Assembly: GCA_015711955.1 (NCBI GenBank)
Contig: JACVJK010000017.1
Coordinates: 1-35,409, forward strand
DNA: 35,409 bases
Direction: 5' to 3'
From: Actinomycetota bacterium
GTDB taxonomy: Bacteria; Actinomycetota; Geothermincolia; Geothermincolales; RBG-13-55-18
Shown: piece after piece, positions 15,103-22,047 of the stretch
Layout of the letters: every line of letters begins with the position of its first letter
How positions within the stretch are numbered: position 1 is the first letter of the stretch
Notes under the pieces: model-generated
Seen by the model: the letters and a program-made list of their open reading frames with translations, nothing else
Told to the model about the DNA's origin: nothing
The model's database searches: none
Made by a program: the position numbers and the translations under genes

Positions 15103-15142
15103 AACATATTAATGTTGACATACTTGAATAAGTTAATATAAT
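15103..15142 (+). promoter_or_regulatory. Near-consensus sigma-70 promoter of the pseudokinase operon
   Basis: TTGACA (15115-15120) and TATAAT (15137-15142) are both perfect and 16 bp apart, in a strikingly AT-rich patch. An inverted repeat AACAT-ATTA-ATGTT (15103-15116) touches the -35, and ACTT-GAAT-AAGT lies in the spacer; either could be a repressor site. GGAGGTGA then precedes ATG 15164. Confidence 0.88.
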
Positions 15143-15163
15143 TAAACTGATCGGAGGTGAACC

Positions 15164-16879
15164 ATGGGAAGGGTCTTGAAAGACAGATGGGTCGTTCGGG
15201 AGACCCTGAGAAGCGGAGAGTTCTGGTCCGTTCACTTAGCGGAGGACGTCATTTCTGGGATTGAGGTAGAGGTGGACGAGATCAAGCTGGGACGCGTCAC
15301 TGCCCAGGATGGGGATCGGTTGGTCGAGCTTTTGGAAATTAGCGCCTCTCTCTCCTCTCCATGCTTCCTTCCCCTTTTAGATTGGTGGACGGAAGGCGAT
15401 CGGTTGTTCGCAGTCAGTAGGAGGGTCAAAGGTTTAAGTCTCTGGGAGTGGATGGACTCGAAAGGCTCGACTGAGCCATCCTTGGCATTGCACCTTGCCA
15501 GGACCGTTAGCGAAGCCGCTTCGGAGCTTTATGGGAAAGGGTGTTCCTATCTGGGTATCAGCCCGCTTCGAGTACTCATCTCCGAAGGCATGGAGGTCTA
15601 TTTGGGAGGAGGAGCTCATGGATGGTTGCTCGAGGATCTTGAGCCTGACGTCTTCAGGCTTGTGGAGAGGTACCGTGCTCCTGAGACCGAGAGGAAAGTG
15701 GAAGGAGGCAGGCCCGCCGATGTATACACCCTGGCGCTTTTAACCCGCGAGCTTTTGCCTCCCGGACCTCTTCCGCCCCGCCTTTCCGGATTCTTGGATT
15801 CTTGTTTGAGCAAGCTCCCCGGAGGCCGGCCTACCTCACCTCGATTGCTGTTAGAGATTCTCGCAGAGGAGTGGAAGGGCTTTGGCCCCGGATTTCCGAT
15901 GGAGAACGGGAAAGGTGTTGGGCAGGTTTATGGTCGTTTCTCTCGGTCCGACCCTCGCTTGGATCCGCCCCACGAAAATGGCAATGTTTACCACCGCTTT
16001 GCGAAACGTATTGCAAAACGACGTCATACCGAAGGCCATGAGGTAGAGGAAGGAATTTGCGATGGACTTGACGCTAATAGAAATCGTAGCCTCAAGCCCC
16101 TGTGGCTCATCCTGGCGATATTTCCGGCTATTTTGCTAGCGCTTTTGGCCGTTTTCTCTGGGGGGAGGAGGAGTGAAGGAGAATCGGGATCGACGACGGG
16201 GATCGGTGAACGTGATTCTCGAATTAAGCTACCTGACTTGGTGGGCCTTCCTAAGGAAAAGGCTGCTGAGCTCCTATCTGATATGGGATTGCGGTTCACC
16301 TTGCGAGAATCGCCCTCCTCTTTATGGTCCGAGGGCACTGTTTGCGCCACCGAGCCCCCATCGGGTGCCATGCTTTCTCCGGGTGAACAAGTGATCCTTT
16401 CCGTGAGCAAAGGTTGGCCGCGGGATGCGCTTGCTGGGTCGACCACGTCTGTCGAACGAGACGGCACCTCGTCGCAAGCGCTCAACGGACGGGAAGGTCG
16501 AACCGTAGGCGCGGAAGAGGATACGAGTTTTGTTTCCAGTGGCACGCAAAGCGGGATCGGATCTCCCTCGTCAGGTGGAGGTAGAAAGGGGGTTTTGGAA
16601 AAGCAGTCAAACAGGGCACCTGTGGCTCGGCTATCGGTTAACCCATCAAAGGGCGCTGCCCCATTGACCGTGGTCTTGAGCGCCCGGGGATCCTTCGACC
16701 CTGACGGGAAGATAGTCAAGTATCAGTGGGATTGCGGTGACGGAACCACCCTTTTTGGGATGGTGGTTAGCCACGTCTACGATGCCGATGTGTTGCCTTG
16801 TGTCTTCAACATCACCCTTAAAGTCGTGGATGACAAAGGCTCAGAGTCGCATAGCAGGACCACGGTGACGGTTCTTTGA
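15164..16879 (+). CDS. Membrane pseudokinase with extracellular PASTA and PKD domains
   Basis: A 571-residue protein starting at ATG 15164 after GGAGGTGA. Residues ~1-240 have the layout of a bacterial Ser/Thr kinase: a glycine-loop relic (LRSGEFWSVHLAED), hinge (RLFAVSRRVKGLSLWEWM), and APE-like YRAPET followed by PADVYTLALLTREL. The catalytic residues are gone: the VAIK Lys is D, HRDxKPxN reads YLGISPLR, and DFG reads GGG. A basic linker leads to one TM (~311-331), one PASTA domain (~352-416), a Ser/Gly-rich stretch, and a PKD domain (~482-571; RGSFDPDGKIVKYQWDCGDG). PASTA domains sense peptidoglycan or lipid II in PknB-type kinases; PKD folds bind proteins or glycans. It is probably a scaffold or sensor at the wall. 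It heads an operon with the M23-like gene. Confidence 0.85.
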   Translation: MGRVLKDRWVVRETLRSGEFWSVHLAEDVISGIEVEVDEIKLGRVTAQDGDRLVELLEISASLSSPCFLPLLDWWTEGDRLFAVSRRVKGLSLWEWMDSKGSTEPSLALHLARTVSEAASELYGKGCSYLGISPLRVLISEGMEVYLGGGAHGWLLEDLEPDVFRLVERYRAPETERKVEGGRPADVYTLALLTRELLPPGPLPPRLSGFLDSCLSKLPGGRPTSPRLLLEILAEEWKGFGPGFPMENGKGVGQVYGRFSRSDPRLDPPHENGNVYHRFAKRIAKRRHTEGHEVEEGICDGLDANRNRSLKPLWLILAIFPAILLALLAVFSGGRRSEGESGSTTGIGERDSRIKLPDLVGLPKEKAAELLSDMGLRFTLRESPSSLWSEGTVCATEPPSGAMLSPGEQVILSVSKGWPRDALAGSTTSVERDGTSSQALNGREGRTVGAEEDTSFVSSGTQSGIGSPSSGGGRKGVLEKQSNRAPVARLSVNPSKGAAPLTVVLSARGSFDPDGKIVKYQWDCGDGTTLFGMVVSHVYDADVLPCVFNITLKVVDDKGSESHSRTTVTVL

Positions 16880-16890
16880 GGGTTTTGGGA

Positions 16891-18693
16891 ATGAGGACGT
16901 CGGGGAAAGAAAGAGGACGGCACACTCCAACTCCCATTCCGGGGATCGTTGGCCGGAGATCTCGATCATTTCCAATGACAAGAGAAGGAAAGCAAAAAAA
17001 CGATATAGCAGATCTGCTCCTCATTTTCCTGCCTCTCCTAACCCTCCTTATCTCCTTCCACCCTTGGCTCTCCCCGGCCCTCGCGGTCGGGGAGAGCCCA
17101 CCCCGATTCGATTGGCCGTTGAGGGGAAGGGTGAGCATGCCCTTCCGGCCACCGACGGGCCCTTATTGGGAAGGGGGGCATGCGGGACTGGACATCGAGG
17201 CCCCCAGGGGGAGTGAGGTGAGGGCCAGCGCTTTTGGCGTGGTGGCCTTTGCGGGCTTCACCCCCTTGGGTCTATGTGTTTCCATCGATCACCAGATGGG
17301 TTTTAGATCCACTTATGTGTCCCTTAAGAGGATTTACGTGAAAAAGGGGGATAAAGTCGAGCGGGGGCAAGTGATAGCCCTAAGTGATGGCTCTATGGAT
17401 CGGTCTTCGAGTTCTCCCCACTTGCATTTCGGGTTGTATCTAAACGGGAAGCCCGTGGACCCTTTTCCTTACCTTTCCGACGTCGATCCAGATCCGGGCA
17501 AATGCCTTTTCTTAGGGCCATGCCAAGAGGATTCGGGCAGGGTGGGAGTTTCGTCGTCGGACAGCCAGGAAAGTAACCCATCTTCCACGCCGGGAAGGGA
17601 GATCGTGAACGGGGAGATCTCAACTTATCGGATCGGGGACTCTGGAGGACGGGACGAAAGAGGGATCTGGGATAGGGCCACGGACTCGGTAAAGAGGTTC
17701 TTTCGGGAGCGCCTGGTGGGGATATTTATGTCCGCTGGAAAGGGCATATCTGCTGGAGTGAGATCATTGCTCTCCAACTCCTATGTCAAGGGAGCGTTGG
17801 CAGGACTTTTGGCCGCCCTGGTGGTTTGTTCCCTCGTCGTCGCCGGCGGTCTGGCCATGGGGATGTCCGTGGTTGCGCTCTCGGTGGCATGTTTGGCCGG
17901 CGGCCTGGCCTCCCTTGGATATTCCGTTTACTTAGCGGGAGCAAGAGGGGGAGGGATTTCTTTTTGGGGTTGTTTCGTATCTGGTCTGATTTTAGGCTTG
18001 TCGGTTGGTGGATCGGTCCTGTTGCTTGGCCAGCTGACCCCTATTTTATCATCGGGATTTGTTTCCTTAGGGTCGATGGGGTTTATCAAGAGTTTCATGG
18101 CCCATGGGGCATCCGGGTGTTTAGCTCATTGGCTCACTTCCCACATAAATGGAGAGCCCCTAGACCTTCGCTGGGCATTGTTGCTGTTTTTGACTTTTGG
18201 AGCCACCGGATCCTTAGGTAAAGCCCTGATAAATGGTCTTTCCCTTGCCAACCCCTACTTAACGACCGGCGTGAGGGCATTGACAGGAAAAGGCCTCGTT
18301 GTCGTCGCCCCCTACGTACTTGGAGGAGGTTTGCATAAAGTGCTTTCATTGGTGCTCCTTTCTGGTTGCTTTGGTGTACTTTCAGATATCTCCATAAATC
18401 TCGCGCTAGGAACATTTCCCAGTACCGAGGAAGTGGCCCTCTCCTTTTTGGGTGGTTGTCTCGCCGGAGCTATTGGCATCACGGTGAAATTGAGGTTTTC
18501 CGGGAGATTGGGGGGCAGAAAAGGTATTTTCGCTCGCCTGAGCAAAAGCGATTTCGTAAAGGGATTCACCGGCAAAGGCTTGGGAGGCACAGCCAGGGAA
18601 ATGTCAAGGAAATGGGCGAGGACGAAAAGAGGAGCGGAATCAGGGAGTTCAGCTGATCCAAACCCGTTCGTCTTTCGCGGTACTTTCGAATAA
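16891..18693 (+). CDS. Secreted M23/LytM-like domain fused to a multi-span membrane region
   Basis: ATG 16891 follows GAGGG by eight bases, 11 bp after the pseudokinase stop. ATG 16975 is an alternative giving a shorter signal sequence. A hydrophobic signal (LLLIFLPLLTLLISF ... SPALA) leads to an M23 domain (~residues 70-200) with the zinc ligands H97 and D101 (GGHAGLDIE) and the H177-L-H179 pair (SPHLHF). The usual YxHL motif reads YVSL, so one conserved catalytic His is missing. LytM-type enzymes cut peptidoglycan cross-bridges; degenerate members regulate amidases. After ~80 polar residues come roughly seven Gly/Ala/Ser-rich hydrophobic segments (~300-530) and a basic tail. A membrane tail this large on an M23 domain is unusual. 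Confidence 0.8.
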   Translation: MRTSGKERGRHTPTPIPGIVGRRSRSFPMTREGKQKNDIADLLLIFLPLLTLLISFHPWLSPALAVGESPPRFDWPLRGRVSMPFRPPTGPYWEGGHAGLDIEAPRGSEVRASAFGVVAFAGFTPLGLCVSIDHQMGFRSTYVSLKRIYVKKGDKVERGQVIALSDGSMDRSSSSPHLHFGLYLNGKPVDPFPYLSDVDPDPGKCLFLGPCQEDSGRVGVSSSDSQESNPSSTPGREIVNGEISTYRIGDSGGRDERGIWDRATDSVKRFFRERLVGIFMSAGKGISAGVRSLLSNSYVKGALAGLLAALVVCSLVVAGGLAMGMSVVALSVACLAGGLASLGYSVYLAGARGGGISFWGCFVSGLILGLSVGGSVLLLGQLTPILSSGFVSLGSMGFIKSFMAHGASGCLAHWLTSHINGEPLDLRWALLLFLTFGATGSLGKALINGLSLANPYLTTGVRALTGKGLVVVAPYVLGGGLHKVLSLVLLSGCFGVLSDISINLALGTFPSTEEVALSFLGGCLAGAIGITVKLRFSGRLGGRKGIFARLSKSDFVKGFTGKGLGGTAREMSRKWARTKRGAESGSSADPNPFVFRGTFE

Positions 18694-19279: not shown

Positions 19280-19837
19280 TCATGGAAGTTGCACACTGGC
19301 GTCTTTCTCTTTTTCCAGGGTTTCCGCAAAAACCTCCGAATGCGATTTCTCGATCCTGTCTCGCCGATAGGAAGGGTTTGTCAGGGATATGACGGCCAGC
19401 CAATAGAGGGCGAACATCGAAGACGCAAGGGTGAACAGAACCAGGGCCCAGAACTCGGTCGTGAAGAGGGCGAGCGAACCCCATAGCAGAGAATTGAGAA
19501 GGAGCGTGGCCATTATTCTGTTTCTCCTGATCTCTGCTTTGCTCGTCCTTTTCGGTCGTCCTGCCGCCCGATGGTCGCGATGGCGCATTACCAGAGATCC
19601 CTCGTGGCTTGCCGTACCGTATCTGGGGGTTGAAGTGGGCATCCCACGCCTTGTGATGTTAATTCGACTGTCTCGACGGGGGTCGCCCATGTTTAACGAC
19701 CTTCCCAGCTCGCTCATGCTCTTCTGGAAGTAATCGGCCGTTGCCACAGGGGATTCCTCAAGCCTTCCCCGAATCAGGGAGGGGATCACCAAAAGGACCG
19801 CCGCAAACCCCAAGAGGAGAAACACTAGGAACTCCAC
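19280..19837 (-). CDS. Three-TM protein with SepX/GlpR-like layout
   Basis: A 185-residue protein from GTG 19837, with GAGGGG seven bases upstream. It has an N-terminal TM (FLVFLLLGFAAVLLVIPSLI), then a juxtamembrane segment (SPVATADYFQKSMSELGRSL), a basic polar stretch (~50-105), and two closely spaced TMs (MATLLLNSLLWGSLALF and WALVLFTLASSMFALYWLAV). A charged tail follows. This order, and the short 'ADYFQKSMSELGRSL' helix after TM1, resemble the actinobacterial SepX/GlpR divisome proteins. The match is by layout only, so the assignment is tentative. It converges on the pseudokinase operon, with about 190 bp between the stops. Confidence 0.6.
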   Translation of the reverse strand: MEFLVFLLLGFAAVLLVIPSLIRGRLEESPVATADYFQKSMSELGRSLNMGDPRRDSRINITRRGMPTSTPRYGTASHEGSLVMRHRDHRAAGRPKRTSKAEIRRNRIMATLLLNSLLWGSLALFTTEFWALVLFTLASSMFALYWLAVISLTNPSYRRDRIEKSHSEVFAETLEKEKDASVQLP

Positions 19838-20730: not shown

Positions 20731-22047
20731 ATGGAACGAGCGGACAGAATGCCTCTGATTAGGAGGAAGAAGTGGATAGGGCGGCTGAAGCTGGCCGTTT
20801 GCTTGGCCCTTTTGGGCGGTCTGGTAGCTGGCTTACTCAACTTTAGCCACATAAAGGTCTGGGCCGCCAAGCATTACCTGAAGTTCCGCTTCAACCCTGC
20901 CGTGATAAGACCGGAACAGGAACCCGATCTCTATGCCCGACTCTCGTCTTGGCACAATCCAAAACAGCTGCTCAACGTCCTTTTCATTGGCATCGACAAG
21001 GGGAGCATTCCCGACGAGGACATGAAGTACTATCGTTCTGACGTGATCATGCTGGCATCGGTGAACGTGGACAAAAAGAAGGCGGTGGTGGTCTCCATCC
21101 CCCGGGATACCAAGGTGAGAATAGAAGGTCACGGTTACCAGAAGATAAACGCGGCCCATGCCTATCACGGCCCAGCTGGGACGGTGGAGGTGGTGGAGGA
21201 GCTCACCGGGATGGAGGTGCACCACTATGCCGAGGTGGACTTCGAGGCTTTCAAGAACATTGTCAACGCCATTGGGGGCGTCCCATTCCGATTGGAGGCG
21301 ACCATCAACGATCCCTTGGTAGGATATCTCCCCAAAGGGGAGCACCTCCTCAACGGCGACCAAGCCCTCATCTTGGTGAGGAGCCGAAAACTGCCTCGGG
21401 GCGACCTTGACCGCATCGAGAACCAGAAGAGGTTCCTCAGGGCTTTGATGGAGAAAGCCCTGTCCATCAGGGACACAAGGACCTTGCTGAACCTCCTCGA
21501 CGCCACCGTTCGCTACCTCAACACCACCATGCAGCCCGAGATGATTTTCGCCTTGGCCGAGCTCATGCAAGGGATGAAGGTGGAGGACGTGGAGTTCGCC
21601 ACCATCCCCGGGGATTCGCCTAAACCGGCGCCGGGGCAGCCGTGGTATTTCGTTCACGATGTCAATGAGACCAAAAGGCTTTTCGACAACATCAGGAGAT
21701 ATTGCAGCGTTCGGGAGCCAGGAGAGGAAAACGTATCGATGGTGGTGCAGGAGATGGCGGAAAAGGCCGCCGTGGCGGTGCTAAACGGGTCCAAGGTGGA
21801 CGGGTTGGCGAGGAGGACTTCAGATTACATCAAGGACTACGGATTCGTCGTGACCAAGGTGGGTGACGCCAGTCAGGTTTATTCCAAGACAAGGATCTTT
21901 TACCGGGAAGATAGCAGGTCGACGGCCGAGAAGCTGGCTTCCCTGCTTAACATAGGAAAGGGAGCTCTAAGTGAAGATAGAGCGGTGTCGGAGAAGCACC
22001 AAGCCGGGGTGGTGCTGGTGATCGGAAAGGATTTCCGGCTTCCGTGA
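20731..22047 (+). CDS. LytR-CpsA-Psr (LCP) family protein with LytR_C domain
   Basis: LCP proteins transfer lipid-linked glycopolymers (teichoic acids, arabinogalactan, capsule) to peptidoglycan on the outer face of the membrane. This 438-residue protein has a short basic N-terminus and one TM (AVCLALLGGLVAGLLNF). The LCP domain follows with LNVLFIGIDKG, RSDVIMLASVN, the arginine motif VVSIPRDT, KINAAHAYHGP, and the GDLDRIENQKRFLRAL region. The C-terminus (~350-438) is a LytR_C domain starting AAVAVLNGSKVDGLARRTSDY. Start ATG 20731 has no obvious ribosome site, and ATG 20749 is a possible alternative. The LCP plus LytR_C pairing is common in actinobacteria. It stands alone as a transcription unit. 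Confidence 0.9.
   Translation: MERADRMPLIRRKKWIGRLKLAVCLALLGGLVAGLLNFSHIKVWAAKHYLKFRFNPAVIRPEQEPDLYARLSSWHNPKQLLNVLFIGIDKGSIPDEDMKYYRSDVIMLASVNVDKKKAVVVSIPRDTKVRIEGHGYQKINAAHAYHGPAGTVEVVEELTGMEVHHYAEVDFEAFKNIVNAIGGVPFRLEATINDPLVGYLPKGEHLLNGDQALILVRSRKLPRGDLDRIENQKRFLRALMEKALSIRDTRTLLNLLDATVRYLNTTMQPEMIFALAELMQGMKVEDVEFATIPGDSPKPAPGQPWYFVHDVNETKRLFDNIRRYCSVREPGEENVSMVVQEMAEKAAVAVLNGSKVDGLARRTSDYIKDYGFVVTKVGDASQVYSKTRIFYREDSRSTAEKLASLLNIGKGALSEDRAVSEKHQAGVVLVIGKDFRLP

What the first reader, a model, noticed from the sequence alone, without database searches (positions are those of the whole stretch)
15164..16879. Kinase fold with every catalytic motif lost, carrying PASTA and PKD outside
VAIK Lys reads D, HRDxKPxN reads YLGISPLR and DFG reads GGG, while the hinge and APE regions persist, so this is a wholesale pseudokinase and not a single-site mutant. 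PknB-type kinases carry PASTA but I know of none that adds a PKD domain. The only other pseudokinase-wall link I recall is the actinobacterial MviN-FhaA pair.
Basis: partly seen in the sequence, partly recalled or inferred. Interest (0 to 1): 0.75.

Follow-up and report, generated by a model that had tools for sequence, protein, structure and literature searches.

The report
Dead kinase paired with wall-cutting enzyme
This gene encodes a membrane protein whose inner half is a protein kinase that lost all its catalytic parts long ago, whose outer half carries a PASTA and a PKD domain, and which in one order of little-known actinobacteria always sits directly before a gene for an intact-looking cell-wall-cutting enzyme, so it is probably a non-catalytic partner of that enzyme.

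Summary
ORF 15164-16879 (+, 571 aa) encodes pseudokinase–TM–PASTA–PKD. The VAIK Lys reads Asp, HRD Asp reads Gly, DFG reads GGA (149-151). This is not decay. Orthologs occur in 18/18 genomes of the order, share the losses (17/17 alignable: Lys→Asp/Glu, HRD Asp→Gly/Ala, DFG Asp→Arg, or Gly in the window's genus), lack the αG region, and the kinase domain evolves at dN/dS 0.16-0.19. PASTA+PKD occur in every genome of the window's family; one sister family has PASTA only, the other neither.

That peptidase is class-wide but stands alone outside this order, so the pseudokinase was added to it. The order also holds three further pseudokinase lineages (one with PKD, two with PASTA) around a normal PknB; its MurJ has no fused pseudokinase.

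Best explanation: a membrane-anchored, non-catalytic partner that senses wall material and positions or gates the M23 peptidase. The genetic link is well supported; direct contact and direction of control are inferred. Verdict: a new variant of a known kind.

The parts
15115..15142 (+). sigma-70-type promoter match TTGACA-16-TATAAT (12/12)
   Evidence: the only promoter-like site found in 4.8 kb (shuffles give 2.1 sites of at least 9/12), but with all 12 positions matched
15153..15160 (+). Shine-Dalgarno GGAGGTGA
   Evidence: sequence
15164..16879 (+). pseudokinase-TM-PASTA-PKD gene (571 aa)
   Evidence: orthologs in 18/18 genomes of the order
15164..15883 (+). pseudokinase domain, residues about 1-240, cytoplasmic side; alphaG region deleted
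   Evidence: dN/dS 0.16-0.19 in related pairs
15275..15277 (+). Asp38 in place of the VAIK Lys
   Evidence: D 16/17, E 1/17
15548..15571 (+). YLGISPLR in place of HRDxKPxN (residues 129-136)
   Evidence: HRD Asp is Gly in 16/17, Ala 1/17
15608..15616 (+). GGA in place of DFG (residues 149-151; RVG, RAG, RSG or RPG in the 16 other aligned orthologs)
16100..16156 (+). single transmembrane helix, residues 313-331
   Evidence: Kyte-Doolittle scan; basic residues on the N-terminal side
16223..16411 (+). PASTA domain (residues 354-416)
   Evidence: Pfam PF03793; only region with confident AF2
16610..16873 (+). PKD domain (residues 483-570)
   Evidence: Pfam PF18911
16891..18693 (+). partner gene: signal/TM, M23 peptidase domain (about 17176-17463), then polytopic membrane domain
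   Evidence: 11 nt after the pseudokinase stop
19280..19837 (-). small membrane protein weakly like divisome SepX/GlpR; conserved neighbour, not claimed as part of the pair
   Evidence: 22-24 bits, cut-off 150
20731..22047 (+). LytR-CpsA-Psr wall glycopolymer transferase; conserved neighbour, not claimed as part of the pair

Best explanation
The protein is a membrane-anchored, catalytically dead kinase that works as a dedicated partner of the M23 peptidase encoded directly after it. The PASTA and PKD domains outside bind cell-wall material or wall proteins; the dead kinase domain inside is a docking platform, toward the peptidase protein's cytoplasmic parts and/or the PknB/FhaA phospho-signalling proteins. 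Together they place or gate the peptidase at sites of wall growth or division. Shown: loss of catalysis by sequence, strong purifying selection on the dead domain, constant gene pairing and close junction, conserved M23 catalytic residues, and that the pseudokinase joined a peptidase that is older than the pair. Inferred: physical contact, the ligands, and whether the effect is activation, restraint or localisation.
For: Orthologs in 18/18 genomes of the order, all checked with the same residue losses and the same alphaG deletion (alphaF Asp to alphaI Arg spacing 35-37 against 64 in PknB). dN/dS of the kinase domain 0.16-0.19, like PASTA (0.18-0.25) and PKD (0.11-0.27), against 0.37-0.79 in linkers. 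The M23 gene lies next to it in every locus where the contig permits; in 13 of 14 window-family loci a start codon for the M23 frame lies between -4 and +12 nt of the pseudokinase stop. M23 HxxxD, HxH and a further His are invariant 17/17. The peptidase is class-wide (31/31) but stands alone in the other orders, so the partner was recruited to it. PASTA kinases are known wall-precursor sensors (e.g. PMC6428115 on PknB and lipid II, abstract seen).
Against: No interaction data. Gene adjacency could reflect shared expression only. A distance-correlation test was not decisive: partial r between the pseudokinase and the M23 membrane domain was 0.70, but an unrelated control pair (LCP and aminotransferase) gave 0.71 with fewer controls. 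Two deeper-branching lineages do without the PKD or without both outer domains, so these are not essential for the pairing. The peptidase exists without the partner in sister orders.
Confidence: 0.5

Rival explanations
1. It is a decoy or allosteric partner of the active PASTA kinase PknB: the dead kinase domain pairs with PknB, or its PASTA competes for PknB's ligand, tuning PknB output.
For: In the tree it groups with the PknB-type kinases of the class rather than with pseudokinase lineage B; the PknB residue R10 is kept in 16/17 and L33 is Leu/Ile in 13/17; it shares PASTA with PknB.
Against: The salt-bridge Asp of the PknB back-to-back dimer (D76) is kept in only 4/17. The gene is linked to M23, not to pknB, whereas lineage C pseudokinases sit beside pknB. 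A single PASTA with a PKD differs from PknB's four.
Confidence: 0.2
2. It is a phosphorylated docking scaffold like MviN-FhaA: PknB phosphorylates its juxtamembrane linker, FhaA binds, and wall work at that site is adjusted.
For: PknB, a PP2C phosphatase and FhaA (FhaA_N + FHA) are encoded together in this genome, while MurJ in the order lacks the fused pseudokinase that FhaA binds in mycobacteria.
Against: The linker between kinase and TM is poorly conserved (24-45% identity, dN/dS 0.37-0.75), with no obvious fixed phospho-Thr motif. It does not match the ActPs3/MviN motifs.
Confidence: 0.15
3. The outer PASTA-PKD part is the working piece (a wall anchor for the operon's peptidase) and the kinase fold is only a cytoplasmic plug or stability domain.
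For: PASTA and PKD are as constrained as the kinase domain.
Against: The kinase domain is the only part kept in all 18 genomes: the f3 genome has no PASTA or PKD and the f2 genomes have no PKD. A mere plug would not need dN/dS 0.16-0.19 and a fixed residue set.
Confidence: 0.1
4. A repurposed enzyme of kinase fold (AMPylation or glutamylation, as in SelO or SidJ).
For: Such conversions exist in bacteria (PMC12599244).
Against: SelO and SidJ keep the Lys and the DFG Asp (PMC12599244 Table 1); here both are replaced by residues of opposite or no charge in every ortholog, and the alphaG region is gone.
Confidence: 0.02

Closest known systems
PknB/Stk1/PrkC PASTA Ser/Thr kinases
   Same: N-terminal kinase fold, one TM, extracytoplasmic PASTA; best profile match in the PDB
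   Different: all catalytic residues lost, alphaG deleted, one PASTA plus PKD, gene paired with M23; NCBIfam PknB_PASTA_kin 47 bits against cut-off 450
MviN (ActPs3) pseudokinase of mycobacteria with FhaA
   Same: actinobacterial pseudokinase tied to the cell wall, all motifs lost, membrane protein; FhaA present in this genome
   Different: not fused to MurJ; motifs VEVD / YLGxxPxQ / RVG against VALT / LSIDHPSR / Y-- (PMC12599244 Table 1); has PASTA and PKD
ActPs1 pseudokinases (actinobacteria)
   Same: all three catalytic residues replaced; alphaG helix missing in about 60% of ActPs1 (PMC12599244) and in 17/17 here
   Different: many ActPs1 carry a PQQ_2 domain; here PASTA and PKD
EssB/YukC (T7SSb)
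   Same: membrane pseudokinase with all motifs lost that acts as a scaffold (PMC12599244)
   Different: different motifs, different outer domain, secretion role
M23 endopeptidases with separate membrane regulators (EnvC/FtsEX type systems)
   Same: wall-hydrolase control through a membrane partner (analogy, from general knowledge)
   Different: no kinase fold in those; here the M23 protein carries its own polytopic membrane domain

Membership tests
PASTA Ser/Thr kinases (PknB/Stk1, NF033483) | active kinase domain with Lys, HRD Asp, DFG Asp | tested here: not met
   NF033483 47.1 bits, cut-off 450
PASTA Ser/Thr kinases (PknB/Stk1, NF033483) | one TM and extracytoplasmic PASTA | tested here: met
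   (one PASTA)
Pseudokinases | kinase fold by homology with catalytic motifs degraded and the domain under selection | tested here: met
   by sequence only, the AF2 models are too poor to show the fold
ActPs3 / MviN | VALT, LSIDHPSR, deleted DFG | tested here: not met
   against PMC12599244 Table 1
ActPs3 / MviN | MviN itself: pseudokinase fused to the MurJ flippase | tested here: not met
   stand-alone gene; MurJ of G004 is 563 aa without a kinase domain, and most MurJ frames of the order are 554-659 aa, too short for one
ActPs1 | all three motifs replaced; alphaG missing (about 60% of members) | tested here: met
ActPs1 | ActPs1 sequence logo / Act1 ancestry | not testable with these tools
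   logos are in a figure that is not held; no ActPs1 sequence set at hand
ActPs1 | C-terminal PQQ_2 domain (many members) | tested here: not met
   one search shows PASTA and PKD only
GLW pseudokinases | GLW in place of HRD and LLLL/W at the beta3 Lys | tested here: not met
   YLG and VEVD here
PKD domain (PF18911) | score over the curated cut-off | tested here: met
   57.6 bits against 27
M23 peptidase (partner gene) | HxxxD and HxH metal/catalytic residues | tested here: met
   86.5 bits; invariant 17/17

The most novel reading that the evidence does not exclude
A new two-protein device for controlling a cell-wall peptidase across the membrane: a dead PASTA kinase, whose pocket in most orthologs has the charges of the beta3 Lys and the DFG Asp swapped (Asp and Arg, able in principle to lock each other), translationally tied to an M23 peptidase with its own membrane domain. 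It would belong to a wider pseudokinase radiation (four lineages) around a PknB in this order.
Probability: 0.35. Interest if true: 0.75.

Novelty: new variant of a known kind. Interest (0 to 1): 0.57.

Why it matters
Bacterial pseudokinases are almost unstudied and only a few have a known partner; a 2025 review (PMC12599244) lists seven bacterial families and its text mentions no PASTA or PKD member. Here a whole order keeps a dead PASTA kinase in fixed company with a wall peptidase, which names a concrete partner and a testable role. If right, it would show the PASTA-kinase architecture being reused without phosphorylation to control wall cutting.

Tried and rejected
AlphaFold2 with a two-row alignment and with the domain alone gave low confidence except for PASTA; Foldseek of the latter gave no match below E 0.3, so structure adds nothing. 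The pseudogene/decay idea was rejected by conservation and dN/dS. Read-through of the pseudokinase stop into the M23 frame was considered, since a few genomes have gap 0, and rejected because the frame relation differs between genomes. Mirror-tree correlation was inconclusive. MurJ-fused pseudokinase in this order: none found; MurJ itself was not found in the window's 79%-complete genome. Plasmid search found nothing. Two phylum-wide searches for the PKD-only paralog failed technically; the class-wide one worked. Whether kinase+PASTA+PKD exists outside Actinomycetota was not tested.

Full report
OBSERVATION. The ORF at 15164-16879 (+) is 571 aa. Its upstream region has a perfect -35/-10 match, TTGACA-16 nt-TATAAT at 15115-15142, then GGAGGTGA and ATG. 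Pfam finds PASTA (354-416, 2.8e-12), PKD (483-570, 1.3e-15) and a sub-threshold kinase match (12-198, 4.6e-6). One hydrophobic helix lies at 313-331 with basic residues before it, which places the kinase half inside and PASTA-PKD outside (inference by the positive-inside rule).

IS IT A KINASE FOLD WITH ALL MOTIFS LOST? Yes, by profile comparison. The ortholog profile reaches S. aureus Stk1 (4EQM/9YMT, 7e-27) and Mtb PknA (8e-27) in the PDB, and hhalign against active kinases of the class (eight PknB plus this genome's second active kinase) gives 99.9% over 240 columns. In these alignments VAVK reads VEVD, HRDIKPHN reads YLGISPLR and DFG reads GGA. Over 17 orthologs the beta3 Lys is D (16) or E (1); the HRD Asp is G (16) or A (1); the HRDxKPxxN Asn is Q (15), R (1) or N (1); the DFG Asp is R (16) or G (1, the window). 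The same-genus relative, which lacks the N-terminus, has G there as well (sequence). APE, the alphaF Asp and the alphaI Arg are invariant. The stretch between alphaF Asp and alphaI Arg is 35-37 residues against 64 in PknB, so the alphaG region is deleted, and the activation segment is 23 residues in all 17 against 26. The charge swap (Asp at the Lys site, Arg at the DFG Asp site) is conserved outside the window's genus; that the two form a salt bridge is only a suggestion.

IT IS NOT DECAY. Orthologs are present in 18 of 18 genomes of the order. In six pairs of related genomes the dN/dS of the kinase domain is 0.16-0.19, similar to PASTA (0.18-0.25) and PKD (0.11-0.27) and well below the linkers (0.37-0.79). 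A kinase-domain tree puts the family in one fully supported clade (100/99), beside the PknB group and a second pseudokinase clade; several long branches meet in that tree, so deep placements are unsure.

ARCHITECTURE. PASTA plus PKD is present in every genome of the window's family. The two genomes of a sister family have PASTA without PKD, and the third family's genome has neither. The closest PKD domains outside the family are in a paralogous pseudokinase-TM-PKD protein, so the PKD was probably acquired by shuffling within the order (inference). The full architecture was not found in 13 genomes of other orders of the class; among 397 genomes of the phylum at E<=1e-40 the only hits outside the order are three whose match ends at the PASTA region. 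No paper in the held library has 'PASTA', 'PKD domain' and 'kinase' together. Other phyla were not searched.

THE PARTNER. The next gene (ATG 16891, 11 nt after the stop) encodes an M23 peptidase domain followed by a polytopic membrane domain. It is adjacent in every ortholog locus where the contig allows; in G009 the pair is split between two contig ends. In 13 of 14 window-family loci a start codon for it lies from -4 to +12 nt of the pseudokinase stop, which suggests translational coupling. HxxxD, HxH and an additional His are invariant 17/17, so the peptidase looks active. The peptidase is found in 31/31 genomes of the class, but outside this order no kinase gene stands next to it. So an older peptidase gained a dead-kinase partner at or before the base of the order; loss of the partner in the other orders is the less simple alternative. 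This is the main reason for the proposed function. A distance-correlation test for co-evolution did not discriminate from a control pair. Downstream neighbours conserved across the order are a small membrane protein weakly like SepX/GlpR and an LCP glycopolymer transferase, both consistent with a wall or division setting.

WIDER CONTEXT. The genome has a normal PknB with four PASTA domains in an operon with FhaA, a PP2C phosphatase, FtsW/RodA and a PBP, and one further active kinase. It also has a PASTA pseudokinase at the PknA position (HRD reads HGS, DFG reads DPG) and a pseudokinase-TM-PKD protein without PASTA (Lys and a DPA Asp kept, HRD reads HLF). Two other genera carry a fourth lineage that derives from PknB. 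Lineage B is confined to the order within the class. MurJ of the order lacks the fused pseudokinase of mycobacterial MviN.

MECHANISM. Most likely a non-catalytic membrane partner of the M23 peptidase, reading wall material by PASTA/PKD outside and docking by the dead kinase inside. Shown: inactivity by sequence, selection, gene pairing, recruitment to an older peptidase. Inferred: contact, ligands, direction of control. Rivals (PknB decoy, MviN-like phospho-scaffold, pure anchor, new enzyme) are set out with tests. For the PknB-decoy rival, the dimer-interface Asp (D76 of PknB, position from general knowledge of that structure) is kept in only 4/17, while R10 is kept in 16/17.

KNOWN FAMILIES. 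The 2025 review of bacterial pseudokinases (PMC12599244) describes ActPs1-3, GLW, CP1, DYD and DLHK. The text of that review does not mention PKD, and names PASTA only in a reference title. ActPs3/MviN motifs are not met; the alphaG loss is shared with ActPs1, whose sequence logo could not be tested. Membership in ActPs1 is therefore open; the architecture and partner are new to the sources searched.

LIMITS. Structure prediction failed for lack of an admissible deep alignment. The window's genome is 79% complete, and its A-family protein is the fastest-evolving of the set. All functional steps beyond the genetics are inference.

Noticed in passing
L063:3468-5189 (-) (window genome contig C31): Paralogous pseudokinase-TM-PKD protein without PASTA; Lys and a DPA Asp kept, HRD reads HLF; conserved in most genomes of the order and absent from the rest of the class.
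   Followed up: partly
L070:4692-6509 (-) (window genome contig C4): Second PASTA protein beside PknB, at the PknA position, is itself a pseudokinase (HRD reads HGS, DFG reads DPG); relatives seen in nine genomes of the order.
   Followed up: partly
L119:3117-4706, L120:2607-4151, L122:3304-4941: A fourth pseudokinase lineage with PASTA (HRD reads HGG) derived from PknB itself in two genera; in L119 and L120 it lies between lineage C and PknB.
   Followed up: partly
window 15275-15277 and 15608-15610 (residues 38 and 149; alignment A3): Charge-swapped kinase pocket: Asp at the beta3 Lys and Arg at the DFG Asp in most orthologs; the Arg is lost in the window's own genus.
   Followed up: partly
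window 16891-18693 and loci L096-L108: M23 peptidase with a Gly/Ala-rich polytopic membrane domain not covered by Pfam; class-wide family of unknown membrane function.
   Followed up: partly
window 19280-19837 (-): Small membrane protein weakly like divisome SepX/GlpR, conserved near the pair in at least 14 loci.
   Followed up: no
genome G000 (window's assembly): No MurJ found in the window's genome (79% complete) or its 62%-complete congener, while the other 16 genomes of the order have it; probably missing sequence.
   Followed up: partly
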